A stretch of 64,000 nucleotides of DNA from assembly GCA_016125075.1 (NCBI GenBank), contig WGMO01000018.1:40162-104161 (forward strand), in the 5' to 3' direction. The translations under genes were made by a program, and so were the position numbers. Below the pieces are notes generated by a model. It did no database searches. It saw nothing but the letters and a program-made list of their open reading frames with translations, and was not told the origin of the DNA. The stretch is from Terrimonas sp. (GTDB lineage Bacteria; Bacteroidota; Bacteroidia; Chitinophagales; Chitinophagaceae). This document shows positions 55,300 to 64,000 of the stretch, piece by piece (within the stretch, counting starts at the first letter, position 1; every line of letters begins with the position of its first letter).

Positions 55300-55333
55300 C
55301 GGCAGTTCTTTACAGCCGGTCAATACCGGTATT

Positions 55334-55450
55334 GCTTATCAAGAAAGGCTGAGGGAAATGGCCCATTGAAGCCTTGACAACCTACCCCGACCCACAAGGA
55401 CGGGATAAGGTGCCAACTCCATCCCGTTGGAAAAATCGGGACAGATAAGT
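55334..55450 (+). promoter_or_regulatory. SAM-I (S-box) riboswitch
   Basis: The leader matches the S-box architecture: P1 is CTTATC (55335-55340) with GATAAG (55444-55449). GAGGGAAATGGCCC and the GAAGCCTTGACAACC core follow, P3 holds CCACAAGG and AAGGTGCCAACTCC, and P4 pairs TCCCG with CGGGA. This aptamer binds S-adenosylmethionine. It precedes metX and hom, so expression of the homoserine branch is expected to fall when SAM is plentiful. Confidence 0.93.
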
Positions 55451-55476
55451 CAGATTAAAAGTTTGATTCCATCACT

Positions 55477-55579: not shown

Positions 55580-56647
55580 ATGTCGACACGTATTTTTAAA
55601 TATCATGATTCCTTTCAGTTGGAAAGCGGTACCCGCATTCCGGGATACCAGCTGGCCTATACCACTTACGGGAAAATGAACAGTGACCGGTCAAATGTGG
55701 TATGGATATTCCATGCGCTCACCGCCAATAGCGATCCTGCCGAATGGTGGCCGGGATTGGTGGGAGACCATAAATGCTTTGACCCCTCCCGGTATTTTAT
55801 CATCTGCGTCAATATGCCGGGAAGTTGCTATGGCAGTACCGGCCCGCTTGAAATAAACAGCCAGACCGGAACGCCCTGGTGGCATGATTTCCCCTTTTTC
55901 ACAACCCGCGATATGATCCGGGCCTATCAACCATTGAAAACATCATTGGGAATTGATAAAATATTCATAGGCATCGGGGGCAGTATGGGAGGACAGCAGT
56001 TACTGGAATGGGCCATCGAAGAACCCGGGGTTTTTGAACACATCATACCCATCGCCACCAATGCACAACATTCTCCCTGGGGCATCGCCTTCAATGCCTC
56101 CCAGCGGATGTGTATTGAAACCGACCCTACCTGGAAAGAAAACCGGAAAGATGCAGGCCTCGAAGGGATGAAAGTGGCCAGGAGTGTTGCCCTGCTCAGT
56201 TACAGGCATTATAACACGTACGAATCAACGCAATCAAGGGATAAAAAAGGACCCTGGCCCCTTCGTCATCCTTATGGAGGAGATGCCGCTGAAAGCTACC
56301 AGCGATACCAGGGAGAAAAACTCGGGAAAAGATTTAATGCTTTCAGCTATTATTTCCTGACCCAGGGGATGGATGCTCATGATGTAGGCAGGAACCGGGG
56401 AACGGTGGCCGCAGCCCTCGGCAGGATAACCGCCAGGACCTTATCCATCGGCATCAGCAGCGATTTACTTTTTCCCCCCCGGGAACAGGAACTGATCGCT
56501 TCACGCATCCCCGGTGCGGCCTATGCCTGTATCGATTCGCTATATGGCCATGACGGGTTCCTGCTGGAATTTGAAAAAACAGAGCAGCTCATCCGTTCAT
56601 TCCTTGATGAAAAACCCCGGCAGCATTTAAAAACAGTAAATGAATAG
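55580..56647 (+). CDS. metX: Homoserine O-acetyltransferase
   Basis: Transfers acetyl from acetyl-CoA to homoserine in the committed step of transsulfuration-type or direct-sulfhydrylation methionine synthesis. The alpha/beta-hydrolase fold shows the nucleophile in GIGGSMGGQQLLEW, preceded by VWIFHALTANSDPAEWWPGL. The catalytic Asp lies in SSDLLFPPREQE and the His in YGHDGFLLEFE. About 355 residues from ATG 55580; a GTG at 55568 is possible. The SAM-I riboswitch and promoter precede it. The last codons overlap the start of hom by 8 nt, so the two are coupled. Confidence 0.95.
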   Translation: MSTRIFKYHDSFQLESGTRIPGYQLAYTTYGKMNSDRSNVVWIFHALTANSDPAEWWPGLVGDHKCFDPSRYFIICVNMPGSCYGSTGPLEINSQTGTPWWHDFPFFTTRDMIRAYQPLKTSLGIDKIFIGIGGSMGGQQLLEWAIEEPGVFEHIIPIATNAQHSPWGIAFNASQRMCIETDPTWKENRKDAGLEGMKVARSVALLSYRHYNTYESTQSRDKKGPWPLRHPYGGDAAESYQRYQGEKLGKRFNAFSYYFLTQGMDAHDVGRNRGTVAAALGRITARTLSIGISSDLLFPPREQELIASRIPGAAYACIDSLYGHDGFLLEFEKTEQLIRSFLDEKPRQHLKTVNE

Positions 56648-60613: not shown

Positions 60614-61347
60614 TATTGGGCCCTTACCGGTCATTTTAAAATAATGCCTTCGTTTATCAACGCAAAAAATGATAGTATAGAAAAAGGCCAGACAGGCCTC
60701 TTCCTTTACACAATCATGATGAACGGGTTACCGAATCCATGTTGTATAATTGATTCCACCCCCAAATGCGGATTGTAAATATTTTACATTAAAAACCAGT
60801 ACCTGATTTTGTCAAGAGATGTATAAAAAGTATAACTCCCTGTTTATCAAAAGGTCAATAGTTAATTTCCGAACTTGCATTCACCCCTCTAGGAGAATAC
60901 ACTTATTTAGAGCTGTGTTTTTATAAAAATATAGCCCGCCATTATGAAATCGAATCATTATTCTCATTAAATTTATTTGCCATCAATCTCATCCTATCCC
61001 CTTCCACAAAAAGGCCCCCGGGATAAGATCAATGGACAATAGCTGATCAGCACAGGTCTCCCATGTGACTGAGGGGCACGAAGTGCGCAAGCAACGGTCC
61101 TGAATTTAAATTGCAATATTCCTTAATTTTCCTTCCCCATTTTCAGAGGCAGGAAAGGCATTTGAAGACCCGGCATCAGAAAAAAATGAAGCTGAAACAA
61201 TAAAAGAAAAGTTGACAATTTTTTTTGCGAAGCGTAAAATTGAAAAATCGGATTGGTACAATAACAATACAAAAAGCGAATACTAAATCTTTGATTATCA
61301 ATATCCCAATTTTTAAAACAACAGCAGCTTATATCATAAATATAATC
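60614..61347. other. AT-rich gap without a credible gene, upstream of the cassette array
   Basis: About 735 bp. A weak hairpin (AGGCC / GGCCT at 60685-60699) may end the PAP2 transcript. The only open frame, 61123-61386 on the minus strand, is 87 residues of low complexity without a recognisable motif and I do not call it. There is no integrase signature (no tyrosine-recombinase RxxR...Y segment was noticed in the short frames). The sequence is more AT-rich than the flanking chromosome. Confidence 0.6.
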
Positions 61348-61356
61348 GTTATGGGC
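61348..61356 (+). other. Left core site (GTTATGGGC) of cassette 1
   Basis: This core is the exact complement of the R'' box at 62203-62211 of the same cassette. No palindrome precedes it, unlike the other three cores, and the ataatc before G differs from the AAC-type spacer in the attC sites. It may be an attI-like site or a secondary insertion site. Confidence 0.6.
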
Positions 61357-61402
61357 AAGCATGGACACCGACAATGTAAACAACAATTAAATAAATAAAC
61401 AA

Positions 61403-61822
61403 ATGGTTTGGGCAATCGTAATCGCAATCGTTGGAATAATATTATTCCGTTTCTTTTCAGCTTTAAGTAAGGACAATGACGACTTACAGGGCAGAACATT
61501 AGATGACAAGTTTAATGTTATAGTCAATATGATAAATGACGCAGCCTTTAACGGCAATGGTTCAGTAACGACTCTTGATAAAAGAGAGTTTAATCTCTAT
61601 GAGGATGGACAAAATCAAATCATCAAATTTCAATACAGCACGGGACACTTGACAATCACTTGGAAATACAAGTATTTTCAAAAGGAAGTCGTTCACGAGA
61701 GACAATTTAATGATGTTAGAAATTTAAGTTTGTTTGAACAGCAAAAAATTGGAGAGCAGATGATTAAAGAAATGGCTATTGTCGTTGAAAGACACAAAAA
61801 CAATGTAATAGGAGGAATTTAA
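61403..61822 (+). CDS. Cassette 1 hypothetical protein A
   Basis: A 139-residue unknown protein. An N-terminal helix (MVWAIVIAIVGIILFRFF) anchors it, followed by a soluble domain: GRTLDDKFNVIVNMINDAAF, KREFNLYEDGQNQIIKFQYS, TWKYKYFQKEVVHERQFNDV, and an end IGEQMIKEMAIVVERH. No known domain is recognised. It is followed after 12 bp by a second small membrane protein in the same cassette, so they may work together. Low GC distinguishes both from the chromosomal genes. Confidence 0.75.
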   Translation: MVWAIVIAIVGIILFRFFSALSKDNDDLQGRTLDDKFNVIVNMINDAAFNGNGSVTTLDKREFNLYEDGQNQIIKFQYSTGHLTITWKYKYFQKEVVHERQFNDVRNLSLFEQQKIGEQMIKEMAIVVERHKNNVIGGI

Positions 61823-61834
61823 ATAACAAAGCAT

Positions 61835-62191
61835 ATGGCGACTTTTTTCTTAATTGTTTCAGCAATTTTGTTCATTGCAACTTTTGGTATTCACATGACA
61901 ATAAACAGTGGCGACCAATTTGACAAACCAATGTATACAAGAAACCCAATAATGTCCGCAATACCTTGGGTTAGTGGTTTCATTCTTCCTGTAATTCCAT
62001 TTACAATTGTATTTGAATACCACTGGCTTGCAATTTTCTTCATTAACCTTGCAGTTGTGTATATATTAGGACCTATGCTGACAAAAGGACTTTTAGTGAG
62101 ATTTGCAAGCGGAAAAGGTTTGGGACACGACATGCTATATTCATTCATAGGCGGTATCGTTACATTAATTATTGGACTAATAGCAAGATGA
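61835..62191 (+). CDS. Cassette 1 hypothetical membrane protein B
   Basis: A 118-residue protein with three or four helices: MATFFLIVSAILFIATFGIH, then AIPWVSGFILPVIPFTIVF, FFINLAVVYILGPMLTKGLL, and MLYSFIGGIVTLIIGLIAR. No motif is recognised. The stop at 62191 is 12 bp before the R'' box of attC1, the usual spacing for a cassette-borne gene. Confidence 0.75.
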   Translation: MATFFLIVSAILFIATFGIHMTINSGDQFDKPMYTRNPIMSAIPWVSGFILPVIPFTIVFEYHWLAIFFINLAVVYILGPMLTKGLLVRFASGKGLGHDMLYSFIGGIVTLIIGLIAR

Positions 62192-62202
62192 CAAAAATGC
62201 CA

Positions 62203-62338
62203 GCCCATAACATCGTATTGGCAATAGGCGGGCTGAACAGCTTCGTATCAGCGGAAGTGCAAAATTCAACTTCTGTTCTTCGTATCAAGTTCAGTACTAA
62301 AAATCCCGCCCATCGCCAATACGTAAACCGTTATGCGC
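62203..62338 (+). other. attC1 recombination site
   Basis: R'' is GCCCATAAC (62203-62211). The arms are CGTATTGGCAATAGGCGGG (62214-62232) and its partner CCCGCCCATCGCCAATACG (62305-62323), 17 of 19 positions complementary. Both mismatches are A-C on this strand, so they are G-T wobbles on the bottom strand, the strand integrases use. An inner CTGAAC/GTTCAG pair (62233-62238, 62289-62294) extends the hairpin. R' G is 62330. Confidence 0.85.
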
Positions 62339-62418
62339 AGTAGGTTTTGCTCACATTCTTAGCCCGGGGGATTACAGTCTACGACAATAGGCGGCCTGTG
62401 ACGGCTTTCCGACAATTC

Positions 62419-62649
62419 TTAAACGGAATTTTCCTGAATAGGCCGGACAATTATCAGGTTTTTCATAGCTGTTACCTGGACACGTTGGTCTTGGCAAAAT
62501 CCTAATTTCTCTAACCAGTGGCCACATAATCGAATTTCAGCGACCTTGACGTAGTTGTATTTGTTTTTTCTAAAATGTGGCTGAATTTTTAAGTTTCTTA
62601 CTTCAGGGCGACGGTTGGTGGCATTCTTCACGGTTTTCTTGACTCGCAT
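62419..62649 (-). CDS. SymE-like toxin, antisense in cassette 2
   Basis: A 76-residue protein from ATG 62649 with a SymE-toxin-type core: YVKVAEIRLCGHWLEKLGF followed by RVQVTAMKNLIIVRP, comparable to the E. coli SymE segment AITLKGQWLEAAGF. SymE of E. coli is an SOS-induced RNA-targeting toxin repressed by an antisense RNA, symR; no antisense RNA is provable here. The strand is opposite to the cassette direction, as is common for toxin-antitoxin cassettes with their own promoter. A longer frame to 62703 adds MLQGSKSWLAAPPGYFQV, which is less likely. Confidence 0.78.
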   Translation of the reverse strand: MRVKKTVKNATNRRPEVRNLKIQPHFRKNKYNYVKVAEIRLCGHWLEKLGFCQDQRVQVTAMKNLIIVRPIQENSV

Positions 62650-62845
62650 AACTTGAAAATAGCCTGGCGGTGCTGCGAGCCAAGATTTGGAACCTTGTAG
62701 CACGGGACTTTCACCCGCCCTCCGCCAGGTAGTTTGACAATAGATTATCAGGCTCCATATGACTCACATGTGCAAATTAGATAGTAGGTGTAAAGAGACA
62801 ATGGTAAAAACAACGGTTTTCAGTAGTGTTTTTCTTCAGAAATTT

Positions 62846-62984
62846 GCGCATAACAAGCGGCTTTGCGTCATGGCGGCTGAGGAACAAATTCTGAGCGATA
62901 GTAATTCTATTCAACTATAAACCAAGGGCCAAGCGGACGGAATTCTAATGCCGCCACGAACGCAAAGCCCCGAACGTTGTGCGT
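62846..62984 (+). other. attC2 recombination site
   Basis: R'' is GCGCATAAC (62846-62854). The arm GGCTTTGCGT (62859-62868) pairs with ACGCAAAGCC (62960-62969), and GGCGGC (62872-62877) with GCCGCC (62950-62955). R' G is 62976. Its R'' complements the cassette-2 start core GTTATGCGC at 62330-62338. Confidence 0.85.
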
Positions 62985-63007
62985 CACTTTAGACAGACCT
63001 CAAAATC

Positions 63008-63649
63008 ATGAAAACATTCTTTAGCGATATATTTCCTAAACTTCAAAGGTTCAGTCAAAAGCTTGACAATTTGACTTTGTTGACAAACCAGCATTGGGTT
63101 TCGATAGACAATATCATTGCTAACAAGACAGTTTACATTTTTCGCAGTAACAATGAATTGTTGGTTTCGACAAATGGCAAAGTAGAGAAAGCTAAATGGG
63201 AATATCTGGGAAACAAGTCTCTACTAATTGACAAAGCAGAAGAAAGTTACCTATTCAAGCACGGTTTTTTTGACGAAAATATTTTAGCGCTTAAAGTTGA
63301 CAGTTCTGAGGAGTATGCCGTTTTCGTAAATGAAAATAATTATGGCGGCGACTTAAACAGCATTCAAAAGGTGTTCGATTTTTTAAAAGAAAAATACCTT
63401 GAACCAAGTTTAAAGTCCCACGTGGAAACTGCTACAGGACAAAGATTTGAAAACACTTACTCACCGAAAAAATCCAAATTTGTTCAACATCAAACTGACA
63501 AGGGAATTGTTGAAATCGAACCTTGCATTAATATGAAAGGACAAAAGGCTTTTATGAATGGACAGCCAGCACCAGACGGACGATATAAATTTGGTTTTTT
63601 GTGGTATGTTGAAATTAGAAATGGAGTTGTTATAAAAAGTAGTGTCTAA
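63008..63649 (+). CDS. Cassette 3 hypothetical protein
   Basis: A 213-residue protein that I cannot assign to a family. It has an N-terminal amphipathic start (MKTFFSDIFPKLQRFSQK) and no signal peptide. The middle is beta-rich: HWVSIDNIIANKTVYIFRSN, KWEYLGNKSLLIDKAEESYL, KHGFFDENILALKVDSSEEY. The C-terminal part has KGIVEIEPCINMKGQKAFMN and YKFGFLWYVEIRNGVVIK. Hypotheticals of this layout seem to occur in other Bacteroidota, but I cannot confirm it. The stop is 22 bp before the R'' box of attC3. Confidence 0.75.
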   Translation: MKTFFSDIFPKLQRFSQKLDNLTLLTNQHWVSIDNIIANKTVYIFRSNNELLVSTNGKVEKAKWEYLGNKSLLIDKAEESYLFKHGFFDENILALKVDSSEEYAVFVNENNYGGDLNSIQKVFDFLKEKYLEPSLKSHVETATGQRFENTYSPKKSKFVQHQTDKGIVEIEPCINMKGQKAFMNGQPAPDGRYKFGFLWYVEIRNGVVIKSSV

Positions 63650-63671
63650 GAATTGAAAGACAACAAAGCGA

Positions 63672-63871
63672 ACGCACAACAAATGCATTTGCAATAGCAT
63701 GGCTGGACGTTGGAGCAATCGGCTGCAAATCATTTTTCAGCTTTAGTTTCGGCAGACAGCATGCTGTTGAGCATTAGTTCATATCTTCAACTTCAGTTTT
63801 TCAATTTGGCATTTGTTCCGGCTGACAGTTCGCTATTGCCATGCCATCGCAAATGCTTCAACGTTGAACCA
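63672..63871 (+). other. attC3 recombination site
   Basis: R'' is ACGCACAAC (63672-63680), complementary to GTTGTGCGT at the cassette-3 start (62976-62984). The arms GCATTTGCAATAGCATGGC (63685-63703) and GCCATGCCATCGCAAATGC (63838-63856) match at 17 of 19; the mismatches are again A-C on this strand and G-T on the other. R' G is 63863. It is unusually long for an attC, at about 200 bp. Confidence 0.82.
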
Positions 63872-63872
63872 A

Positions 63873-63901
63873 CATCGCCTATTCAGGCGATGAGTTTTTT
63901 T
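63873..63901 (+). terminator. Intrinsic terminator at the start of cassette 4
   Basis: CATCGCC (63873-63879) with GGCGATG (63886-63892), a 6-nt loop and seven Ts starting at 63895. It lies within 10 bp of the cassette boundary. Confidence 0.8.
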
Positions 63902-63950
63902 AGATTCTTCTATCTTGTAGTTATTTTTTAATCTTTAAAACTTTAAGATC

Positions 63951-64000
63951 ATGGAAAAAAAACATTAAGTCCTCAGGCTATTGCTGCATTGGAAAAAACC
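63951..64000 (+). other. Possible gene start cut by the window edge, frame broken in a poly-A run
   Basis: ATG at 63951 is followed by G and eight As, then CATTAAG, so the frame stops after five codons (MEKKH). If the run were nine As the frame would continue as MEKKTLSPQAIAALEKT to the window end. This could be a true frameshift, slippage, or a base-calling error in the homopolymer. Beyond 64000 nothing can be said. Confidence 0.35.

What the first reader, a model, noticed from the sequence alone, without database searches (positions are those of the whole stretch)
61348..64000. Integron cassette array (CALIN) in a Bacteroidota chromosome
Each of the first three units is closed by a palindrome that starts with AAC and ends with GTT, and its R'' box equals the reverse complement of the core at the same unit's 5' boundary (three of three, 9 nt each). 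That pairing is a specific consequence of cassette circularisation at G^TT and is hard to get by chance. Genes run into the attC sites, except one antisense toxin. Integron cassettes are established mainly in Proteobacteria; an array in this phylum is unusual and could carry a distinct integrase and attC set.
Basis: partly seen in the sequence, partly recalled or inferred. Interest (0 to 1): 0.93.

Follow-up and report, generated by a model that had tools for sequence, protein, structure and literature searches.

The report
Integron run by a non-IntI integrase
A bacterial chromosome of the Bacteroidota carries a row of swappable-looking genes with the join sites of an integron, and in relatives the same sites lie right behind a recombinase that lacks the part held to be necessary for capturing such genes, so it likely captures them in a different way.

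Summary
The window has three AAC...GTT hairpins, and each matches its unit's 5' boundary over 9 of 9 nt. The array begins at an attI-like site (61209-61350). On contig C25 a 93% identical copy of that site starts at the stop codon of a tyrosine recombinase gene, with the crossover 137 nt behind the gene. This recombinase is not IntI: it lacks the IntI-specific insert and falls below the integron-integrase cut-off.

In 20 same-family loci, 91 of 92 such attC lie 3' of the recombinase, all 92 in its direction; 66 of 70 neighbouring pairs obey the boundary rule, control pairs 10%. The attI crossover predicted from attC alone falls 91-239 bp behind the gene in 29 of 35 loci, on a conserved core. 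Two related genomes are 99% alike left of G^TT and at random identity right of it. The attC set differs from that beside classical IntI in the same phylum.

I read it as an integron-like cassette system with a distinct integrase, attI and attC. Recombination itself is inferred. 'CALIN' is not the best name.

The parts
61067..61087 (+). 21-nt motif GACTGAGG[T/G]GCACGAAGTGCG, left end of the attI platform
   Evidence: 4 places in the genome at up to 2 mismatches, each 5' of one of the four attI copies, 189-281 nt before GTT in three and 1403 nt in C25 where the recombinase gene lies between; also 179 nt before GTT in two arrays of the same-genus genome G021
61209..61350 (+). attI-like site; crossover at G^TT 61348
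   Evidence: 93% identical to C25:138-279, which follows the recombinase gene; 77-78% copies over a shorter part on C22 and C5; core C[AG]TA[AT]ATTTAnGnGTT conserved in 33 sites
61349..62330 (+). cassette 1 (TT...gene(s)...attC...G)
   Evidence: 5' boundary GTTATGGGC equals reverse complement of its R'' box
61403..61822 (+). 139-aa gene of cassette 1, no Pfam match
61835..62191 (+). 118-aa gene of cassette 1, no Pfam match
62203..62338 (+). attC 1 with both R boxes (124 nt from AAC to GTT)
62331..62976 (+). cassette 2
62419..62703 (-). 94-aa SymE-like toxin gene, antisense to the array
   Evidence: PF08845 39.9 bits, cut-off 29
62846..62984 (+). attC 2 with both R boxes (127 nt)
62977..63863 (+). 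cassette 3
63008..63649 (+). 213-aa gene of cassette 3, no Pfam match
63672..63871 (+). attC 3 with both R boxes (188 nt)
63864..64000 (+). start of a fourth cassette, cut by the contig end; the same sequence follows attI on C25 and on C22
   Evidence: From GTT 63863 on, identical to C25 to the window's end and to C22 over its last 131 nt, with different letters before GTT in C22

Best explanation
This is a row of integron-type gene cassettes behind its own attI site, and it is likely filled and shuffled by a tyrosine recombinase that is encoded on another contig and lacks the IntI-specific domain. Shown: hairpin attC sites with compensatory changes, the boundary rule, an attI core placed by prediction, one linked recombinase family, cassettes duplicated with their hairpin, and divergence of two genomes at G^TT. 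Inferred: the recombinase binds the folded bottom strand of attC and exchanges it with double-stranded attI at G^TT. Inferred: strand choice rests on conserved G.T wobble pairs (A.C mismatches on the top strand) and unequal spacers rather than on the extrahelical bases that IntI reads with its I2 helix. Inferred: the single gene serves in trans three further attI platforms in this genome, the window's among them.
For: Site structure: 48 attC aligned on the bottom strand give 20 pairs, 11 with compensatory changes; G.T pairs at columns 10/247 and 29/231 in 48 of 48. With the arms alone the bottom strand is the more stable in 38 of 48; with full sites in 29 of 48. Linkage: in 20 same-family loci 91 of 92 model hits lie 3' of the recombinase and 92 of 92 share its orientation. 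In 80 named loci: 133 downstream in the same direction, 0 downstream opposite, 3 upstream; 29 of the 133 lie in 5 loci that repeat the first set. Boundary rule: 66 of 70 adjacent pairs (20 loci, window and C5) and 78 of 86 (named loci) at 8 or 9 of 9; control pairs 10.1 and 10.8%. attI: the crossover predicted from the first R'' box is found behind the gene in 33 of 35 loci, 29 of them at 91-239 bp (24 of these 9 of 9, 5 at 8 of 9); C-13 in 32 of 33 and G-2 in 29 of 33. Mobility: two within-array duplicate cassettes run from GTT through an identical hairpin while the 60 nt to the left are 67 and 57% alike. Two related genomes share 87 identical nt up to GTT, 99% left and 60% right over 180 nt, random pairs 59%. 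Own genome: the same fourth cassette follows attC 3 here and attI on C25 and on C22. Association: attC in 58 of 60 recombinase-bearing genomes against 48 of 87 without (my count from the lists).
Against: No recombination was seen; no circle or strand exchange can be tested here. The I2 domain is reported as necessary for cassette capture by IntI (PMC7790495 passage). R1 was built from sites in the window, C5 and 13 of the 20 loci, so their counts are partly by construction; a few of the 92 hits match only part of the model. 13 of 43 named loci with at least 2.5 kb behind the gene have no R1 hit; 2 of these are labelled Ferruginibacter or Chitinophagaceae, most others are Flavobacteriia, Cytophagales and the like. 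One long same-family locus (L075) has none, nor has a Rufibacter plasmid with a distant relative. 48 of 87 genomes without a recombinase match have attC sites, among them the same-genus genome G021, whose best hit to the recombinase profile is only 1.7e-41. One cassette shared between two genomes (84%) does not share its hairpin (61%, background 57). In 4 of the 33 loci the predicted crossover lies 533-1000 bp behind the gene. In the own genome attI of the window and the recombinase are on different contigs.
Confidence: 0.86

Rival explanations
1. The array is an ordinary CALIN: cassettes left behind by, or captured through, a classical IntI integron.
For: Classical IntI exists in the phylum (105 of 395 genomes over cut-off); no recombinase lies beside the array in the window.
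Against: No IntI over cut-off in the own genome (best piece 90.8 bits against 265); of the 105 IntI genomes one is in the same order and none is closer. Of 16 fetched IntI loci the detector finds attC in 6, of other sequence, and R1 has 0 hits in all 16.
Confidence: 0.06
2. Each gene is a small transposon-like unit whose inverted 9-nt ends (GTT...AAC) are what moves, and the hairpins are separate fixed elements.
For: The 9-nt boxes do flank each gene as inverted repeats; one cassette shared between genomes stops exactly at AAC with a different hairpin behind it.
Against: The two within-array duplicates carry an identical hairpin with the gene; two genomes diverge at GTT behind attI; the longest reading frame runs with the array in 81 of 82 cassettes of 14 loci.
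Confidence: 0.04
3. The host's XerC/XerD move the cassettes and the linked recombinase is an unrelated passenger.
For: A XerD over its cut-off and a XerC-like protein are present, and Xer has no IntI insert either.
Against: attI lies behind this recombinase in 29 of 35 loci at a short distance. R1 has no hit in the two own loci of about 19 kb around these two genes.
Confidence: 0.03

Closest known systems
Classical integron with IntI (sedentary chromosomal or class 1)
   Same: Cassettes in one direction, folded attC with AAC...GTT core, attI at the head, G^TT boundary rule, very mixed gene content
   Different: Recombinase lacks the IntI insert (K-motif to HxLRH distance 64-69 against 106); attC clustering near 124, 158 and 189 nt, with invariant G.T wobbles and a bulged base at column 28 in 14 of 48 only; other attC sequence family
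Treponema integrons with intI transcribed toward attI
   Same: Order recombinase > attI > cassettes, all in one direction (PMC3607928 passage)
   Different: Those have an intI gene; here the recombinase is of another group
CALIN (cluster of attC lacking integrase)
   Same: No recombinase beside the attC cluster in the window
   Different: attI present; matching recombinase in the genome beside a 93% attI copy
XerA/XerC/XerD-type tyrosine recombinases
   Same: Overall fold and no insert; best solved relatives are XerA-type proteins and IntI4
   Different: An extra N-terminal stretch of about 80-120 residues, a C-terminal SPLDDL tail (SP invariant in 21 rows; IntI4 has SPL), and linkage to attC arrays

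Membership tests
Classical IntI integron | Tandem cassettes each ending in a folded attC with AAC/GTT core | tested here: met
Classical IntI integron | Seven-nt R boxes RYYYAAC / GTTRRRY (recalled consensus) | tested here: not met
   The four commonest R'' boxes of 70, GCAGCCAAC, ACCGCTAAC, ACGCACAAC and GCCGCTAAC, break the recalled consensus outside AAC
Classical IntI integron | Recombinase with the IntI-specific insert (I2 / patch III region) | tested here: not met
   Distance KGxKxR to HxLRH 64-69 in 59 rows, 106 in 13 of 13 IntI, 69-72 in 3 Xer rows; unmatched block in IntI4; 171 bits against cut-off 265
Classical IntI integron | attI next to the recombinase gene | tested here: met
Classical IntI integron | Cassette exchange at G^TT | tested here: met
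   Sequence footprints only:
Classical IntI integron | Extrahelical bases in the attC stem | tested here: inconclusive
   A bulged base at column 28 in 14 of 48; other unpaired bases, as in the spacers, were not scored
Classical IntI integron | Recombination of single-stranded attC shown by experiment | not testable with these tools
   needs an assay
CALIN | At least two attC and no integrase nearby | tested here: inconclusive
   No recombinase beside the array in the window, but the contig ends inside the array and attI is present
Rfam families | Match over gathering score | tested here: not met
   The one match in the window is a SAM riboswitch elsewhere

The most novel reading that the evidence does not exclude
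A second lineage of integrons: a large family of I2-less tyrosine recombinases across Bacteroidota captures folded single-stranded attC cassettes, choosing the strand by invariant G.T wobbles instead of extrahelical bases. In this genus one enzyme feeds several integrase-free attI platforms spread over the chromosome. It would be either the missing intermediate from which IntI arose or an independent invention.
Probability: 0.5. Interest if true: 0.95.

Novelty: new variant of a known kind. Interest (0 to 1): 0.86.

Why it matters
Work on integron origins reports the I2 helix as necessary for cassette capture, and the same paper names the lack of intermediates as an obstacle to retracing how IntI arose (PMC7790495 passages). 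A natural recombinase without that insert, linked to attI and attC, would make the question directly testable. Tools that look for the integrase with an IntI profile would likely miss this one, in a phylum common in soil and water.

Tried and rejected
IntegronFinder could not be run; a model of the sites themselves (R1) was built instead. Rfam gave nothing for the sites. XerD, the XerC-like protein and the other tyrosine recombinases of the genome (9 matches in all) were set aside: only the C25 gene lies at a copy of attI. The 21-nt motif was looked for from 900 nt before to 60 nt after the start of the recombinase match in 20 relatives of other genera: 0 of 20 at up to 5 mismatches, so it is not a general part. 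In G021 only the fetched stretches were scanned for it; one of the three copies (L215) has no attI that I could recognise near it. The protein of the flanking gene finds only a 44% relative in G021, too distant for an empty-site test. The tree does not settle whether IntI branches beside or within the new group: the new group is one side of a branch at 72 in the quick tree and in 68% of bootstrap trees in the careful one, with long Xer branches. The AlphaFold model is of middling quality (pLDDT 78.5, pTM 0.48), and its fold search adds only XerA and IntI4 as nearest. Rows dropped before counts: one partial protein (L111) from the distances; 6 of 76 rows before the first tree and 17 of 76 before the second; of 52 detector sites 4 before alignment A1 (one cut by a contig end, two with a doubtful GTT, one near copy); 2 of 82 short frames left out of A4; 19 of the 38 named loci with attC were used, chosen for a short gap to the first attC, and the limit of 260 bp was set after seeing the distances. 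In a first measurement of the two-genome junction one GTT was misplaced; one search is the corrected one.
Full report
Observation. The window's last 2.7 kb hold three hairpins that start with AAC and end with GTT. Each hairpin's R'' box is the exact reverse complement, 9 of 9 nt, of the GTT box at the 5' boundary of its own unit. A detector of arm complementarity, written after seeing them, finds these three sites and no others in 64 kb, and none at their score in 50 simulated windows. The array begins at G^TT 61348. The window is G000:C2:40162-104161 and the contig ends at the window's end.

attI and the recombinase. The 142 nt up to the first GTT (61209-61350) recur at 93% identity on contig C25, and at 77-78% over a shorter part on C22 and C5. 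On C25 this stretch starts at the stop codon of a 407-aa tyrosine recombinase gene (L020:278-1501, minus strand), and 137 nt lie between gene and GTT. So recombinase, attI and cassettes run in one direction. It is the only match to this recombinase at E 1e-30 or better in the genome. After attI on C25 and on C22 comes the sequence that follows attC 3 in the window, identical from GTT on (140 and 131 nt). One cassette start thus has three different left neighbours with the junction at GTT. A 21-nt motif occurs four times in the 3.92-Mb genome, 189-281 nt before GTT at three attI copies and 1403 nt before it on C25, where the recombinase gene lies between. In the same-genus genome G021 the motif lies 179 nt before the predicted crossover of two arrays, too short for a recombinase gene.

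The recombinase is not IntI. The integron-integrase model TIGR02249 gives 171 bits against a cut-off of 265, in two pieces around an unmatched block, and phmmer against IntI4 leaves the same block unmatched. The distance from KGxKxR to HxLRH is 106 in 13 of 13 IntI, 69-72 in three Xer proteins and 64-69 in 59 rows of this group. Arg254, Lys281, His346, Arg349, His372 and Tyr381 are invariant in 21 aligned relatives (their catalytic role is taken from knowledge of the fold). The IntI rows form one well supported clade apart from this group (99 in the quick tree, 100/100 in the careful one), with three Xer rows as root. Whether IntI branches beside or within the group is open.

The sites in relatives. 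The recombinase was found in 60 of 147 same-family genomes. The family is Chitinophagaceae, to judge from loci identical to named ones. Around 20 of the matches I fetched up to 20 kb each. The detector found arrays there, and 48 of 52 sites, the window's and C5's included, were aligned on the bottom strand. The consensus has 20 pairs, 11 with changes on both sides. Two pairs are G.T in 48 of 48; on the top strand these are A.C mismatches. A covariance model R1 was built. In the 20 loci it gives 92 hits at E 1e-4 or better, a few of them partial, all in the recombinase's direction and 91 of them behind it; 16 of 20 loci have such hits, and three of the other four end within 550 bp of the gene. 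Of 70 adjacent pairs (window and C5 included) 66 match at 8 or 9 of 9 nt, against 10.1% of 4830 control pairs. 13 of these 20 loci helped to build R1, so the named loci matter more. In 80 loci from named genomes there are 133 hits downstream in the same direction, none downstream opposite and 3 upstream. 30 of 43 loci with at least 2.5 kb behind the gene have hits, and 78 of 86 pairs match against 10.8%. Five of the 80 loci repeat the first set and hold 29 of the 133 hits. Named hosts with hits include Niabella, Ilyomonas limi, Sediminibacterium, Terrimonas, Dyadobacter and Flavobacterium enshiense.

attI placed by prediction. If these are cassettes, the first attC's R'' box must match a GTT box at the end of attI. 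I looked for it behind the recombinase in 35 loci, 16 of the first set and 19 of the named ones. It was found in 33 (in the two others no R'' box was read), at 91-239 bp in 29 and at 533-1000 bp in four; 24 of the 29 match 9 of 9 and five 8 of 9. Aligned at that GTT, the 29 sites and the four of this genome share C[AG]TA[AT]ATTTAnGnGTT (C-13 in 32 of 33, A-8 in 31, T-7 in 30, G-2 in 29). The core was not used to find the 29 sites.

Movement. Of 138 cassettes with both boundaries, four pairs share their gene part. Two are duplicates within one array that begin at GTT and include an identical hairpin, with 67 and 57% identity in the 60 nt left of GTT. One is shared between two genomes at 84% with a different hairpin, and one is a weak match at 65%. 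Two related genomes, G066 and the named assembly behind L178, are 90% alike over 11.3 kb; they share 87 identical nt up to GTT behind the recombinase and five letters from GTT on, then diverge: 99% left and 60% right over 180 nt, where random pairs give 59%. The longest reading frame runs with the array in 81 of 82 cassettes of 14 loci. 85 cassette proteins hit 43 Pfam families, each of the 25 listed in one member only.

Controls. R1 has no hit in 22 loci (315 kb): 16 with classical IntI, a class 1 integrase, own XerD and XerC-like loci, and also the Rufibacter plasmid with a distant relative of the recombinase. The detector finds attC that fit the boundary rule beside IntI in 6 of the 16, of 52-138 nt and other sequence. 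Classical IntI is over cut-off in 105 of 395 same-phylum genomes, one of them in the same order and none closer. R1 has a match in 106 of 147 family genomes (E 0.001) and 99 of 395 phylum genomes (E 1e-5). By my count from the lists, genomes with the recombinase have attC in 58 of 60, those without in 48 of 87. So arrays without a detected recombinase are common, through loss, broken assembly or relatives below my threshold.

Literature (passages read, not whole papers). Integrons are already reported from Bacteroidota: intI in the Bacteroidetes/Chlorobi group (PMC2426708) and the phylum in lists (PMC8618304; PMC9668308). IntegronFinder 2.0 reports only In0 in Bacteroidetes earlier and one complete integron, in Salinibacter, later (PMC9024848). 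The text of a survey with taxon-specific attC models does not hold the phylum's name (PMC8352920). The archaeal paper treats the additional domain as defining for IntI (PMC9668308). The I2 domain is said to accommodate extrahelical bases and not to be known elsewhere (PMC4792948), to be necessary for capture, and intermediates are said to be lacking (PMC7790495). Ten searches of this open-access library listed no paper that by title or start of abstract describes this system; subscription papers and preprints are not held.

Reading. It works like an integron and fails a defining test of the IntI family, so I file it as a variant. That the recombinase acts on folded bottom strands, and that G.T wobbles set the strand, is inferred: with arms alone the bottom strand folds better in 38 of 48 sites, with full sites in 29 of 48.

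Noticed in passing
window 61067-61087; C22:378033; C5:2875; C25:1543; L214, L215, L219: A 21-nt motif marks the left end of attI platforms in this genome and in same-genus G021; three of the four platforms here have no recombinase gene. How the platforms multiplied is unexplained.
   Followed up: partly
window 63873-63900: The fourth cassette begins with a GC-rich hairpin (63873-63892) followed by a run of T, like an intrinsic terminator (read by eye).
   Followed up: no
attC of L128-L207: attC lengths cluster at about 124, 158 and 189 nt, steps near 31-34 nt, about three helical turns.
   Followed up: no
G004 single contig: 43 attC, one array behind the recombinase and many lone sites; by eye their strand follows the two halves of the chromosome, as replication-linked insertion would give. 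Not tested.
   Followed up: no
L209 (Rufibacter tibetensis plasmid 1): A distant relative of the recombinase on a mobilizable plasmid is followed by a run of small genes with short GTT-ended hairpins; one boundary pair read by eye fits the rule. R1 does not hit it.
   Followed up: partly
L073:14394 and L137:11937 (oriented coordinates): The same cassette gene (84%) in two genomes ends exactly at AAC with different hairpins, as if the hairpin had been replaced.
   Followed up: partly
window 55333-55451: SAM riboswitch (76.5 bits) before an ATG at 55580.
   Followed up: no
L226, L235-L238, L241: Classical IntI arrays elsewhere in the phylum, with attC of a different sequence family.
   Followed up: yes
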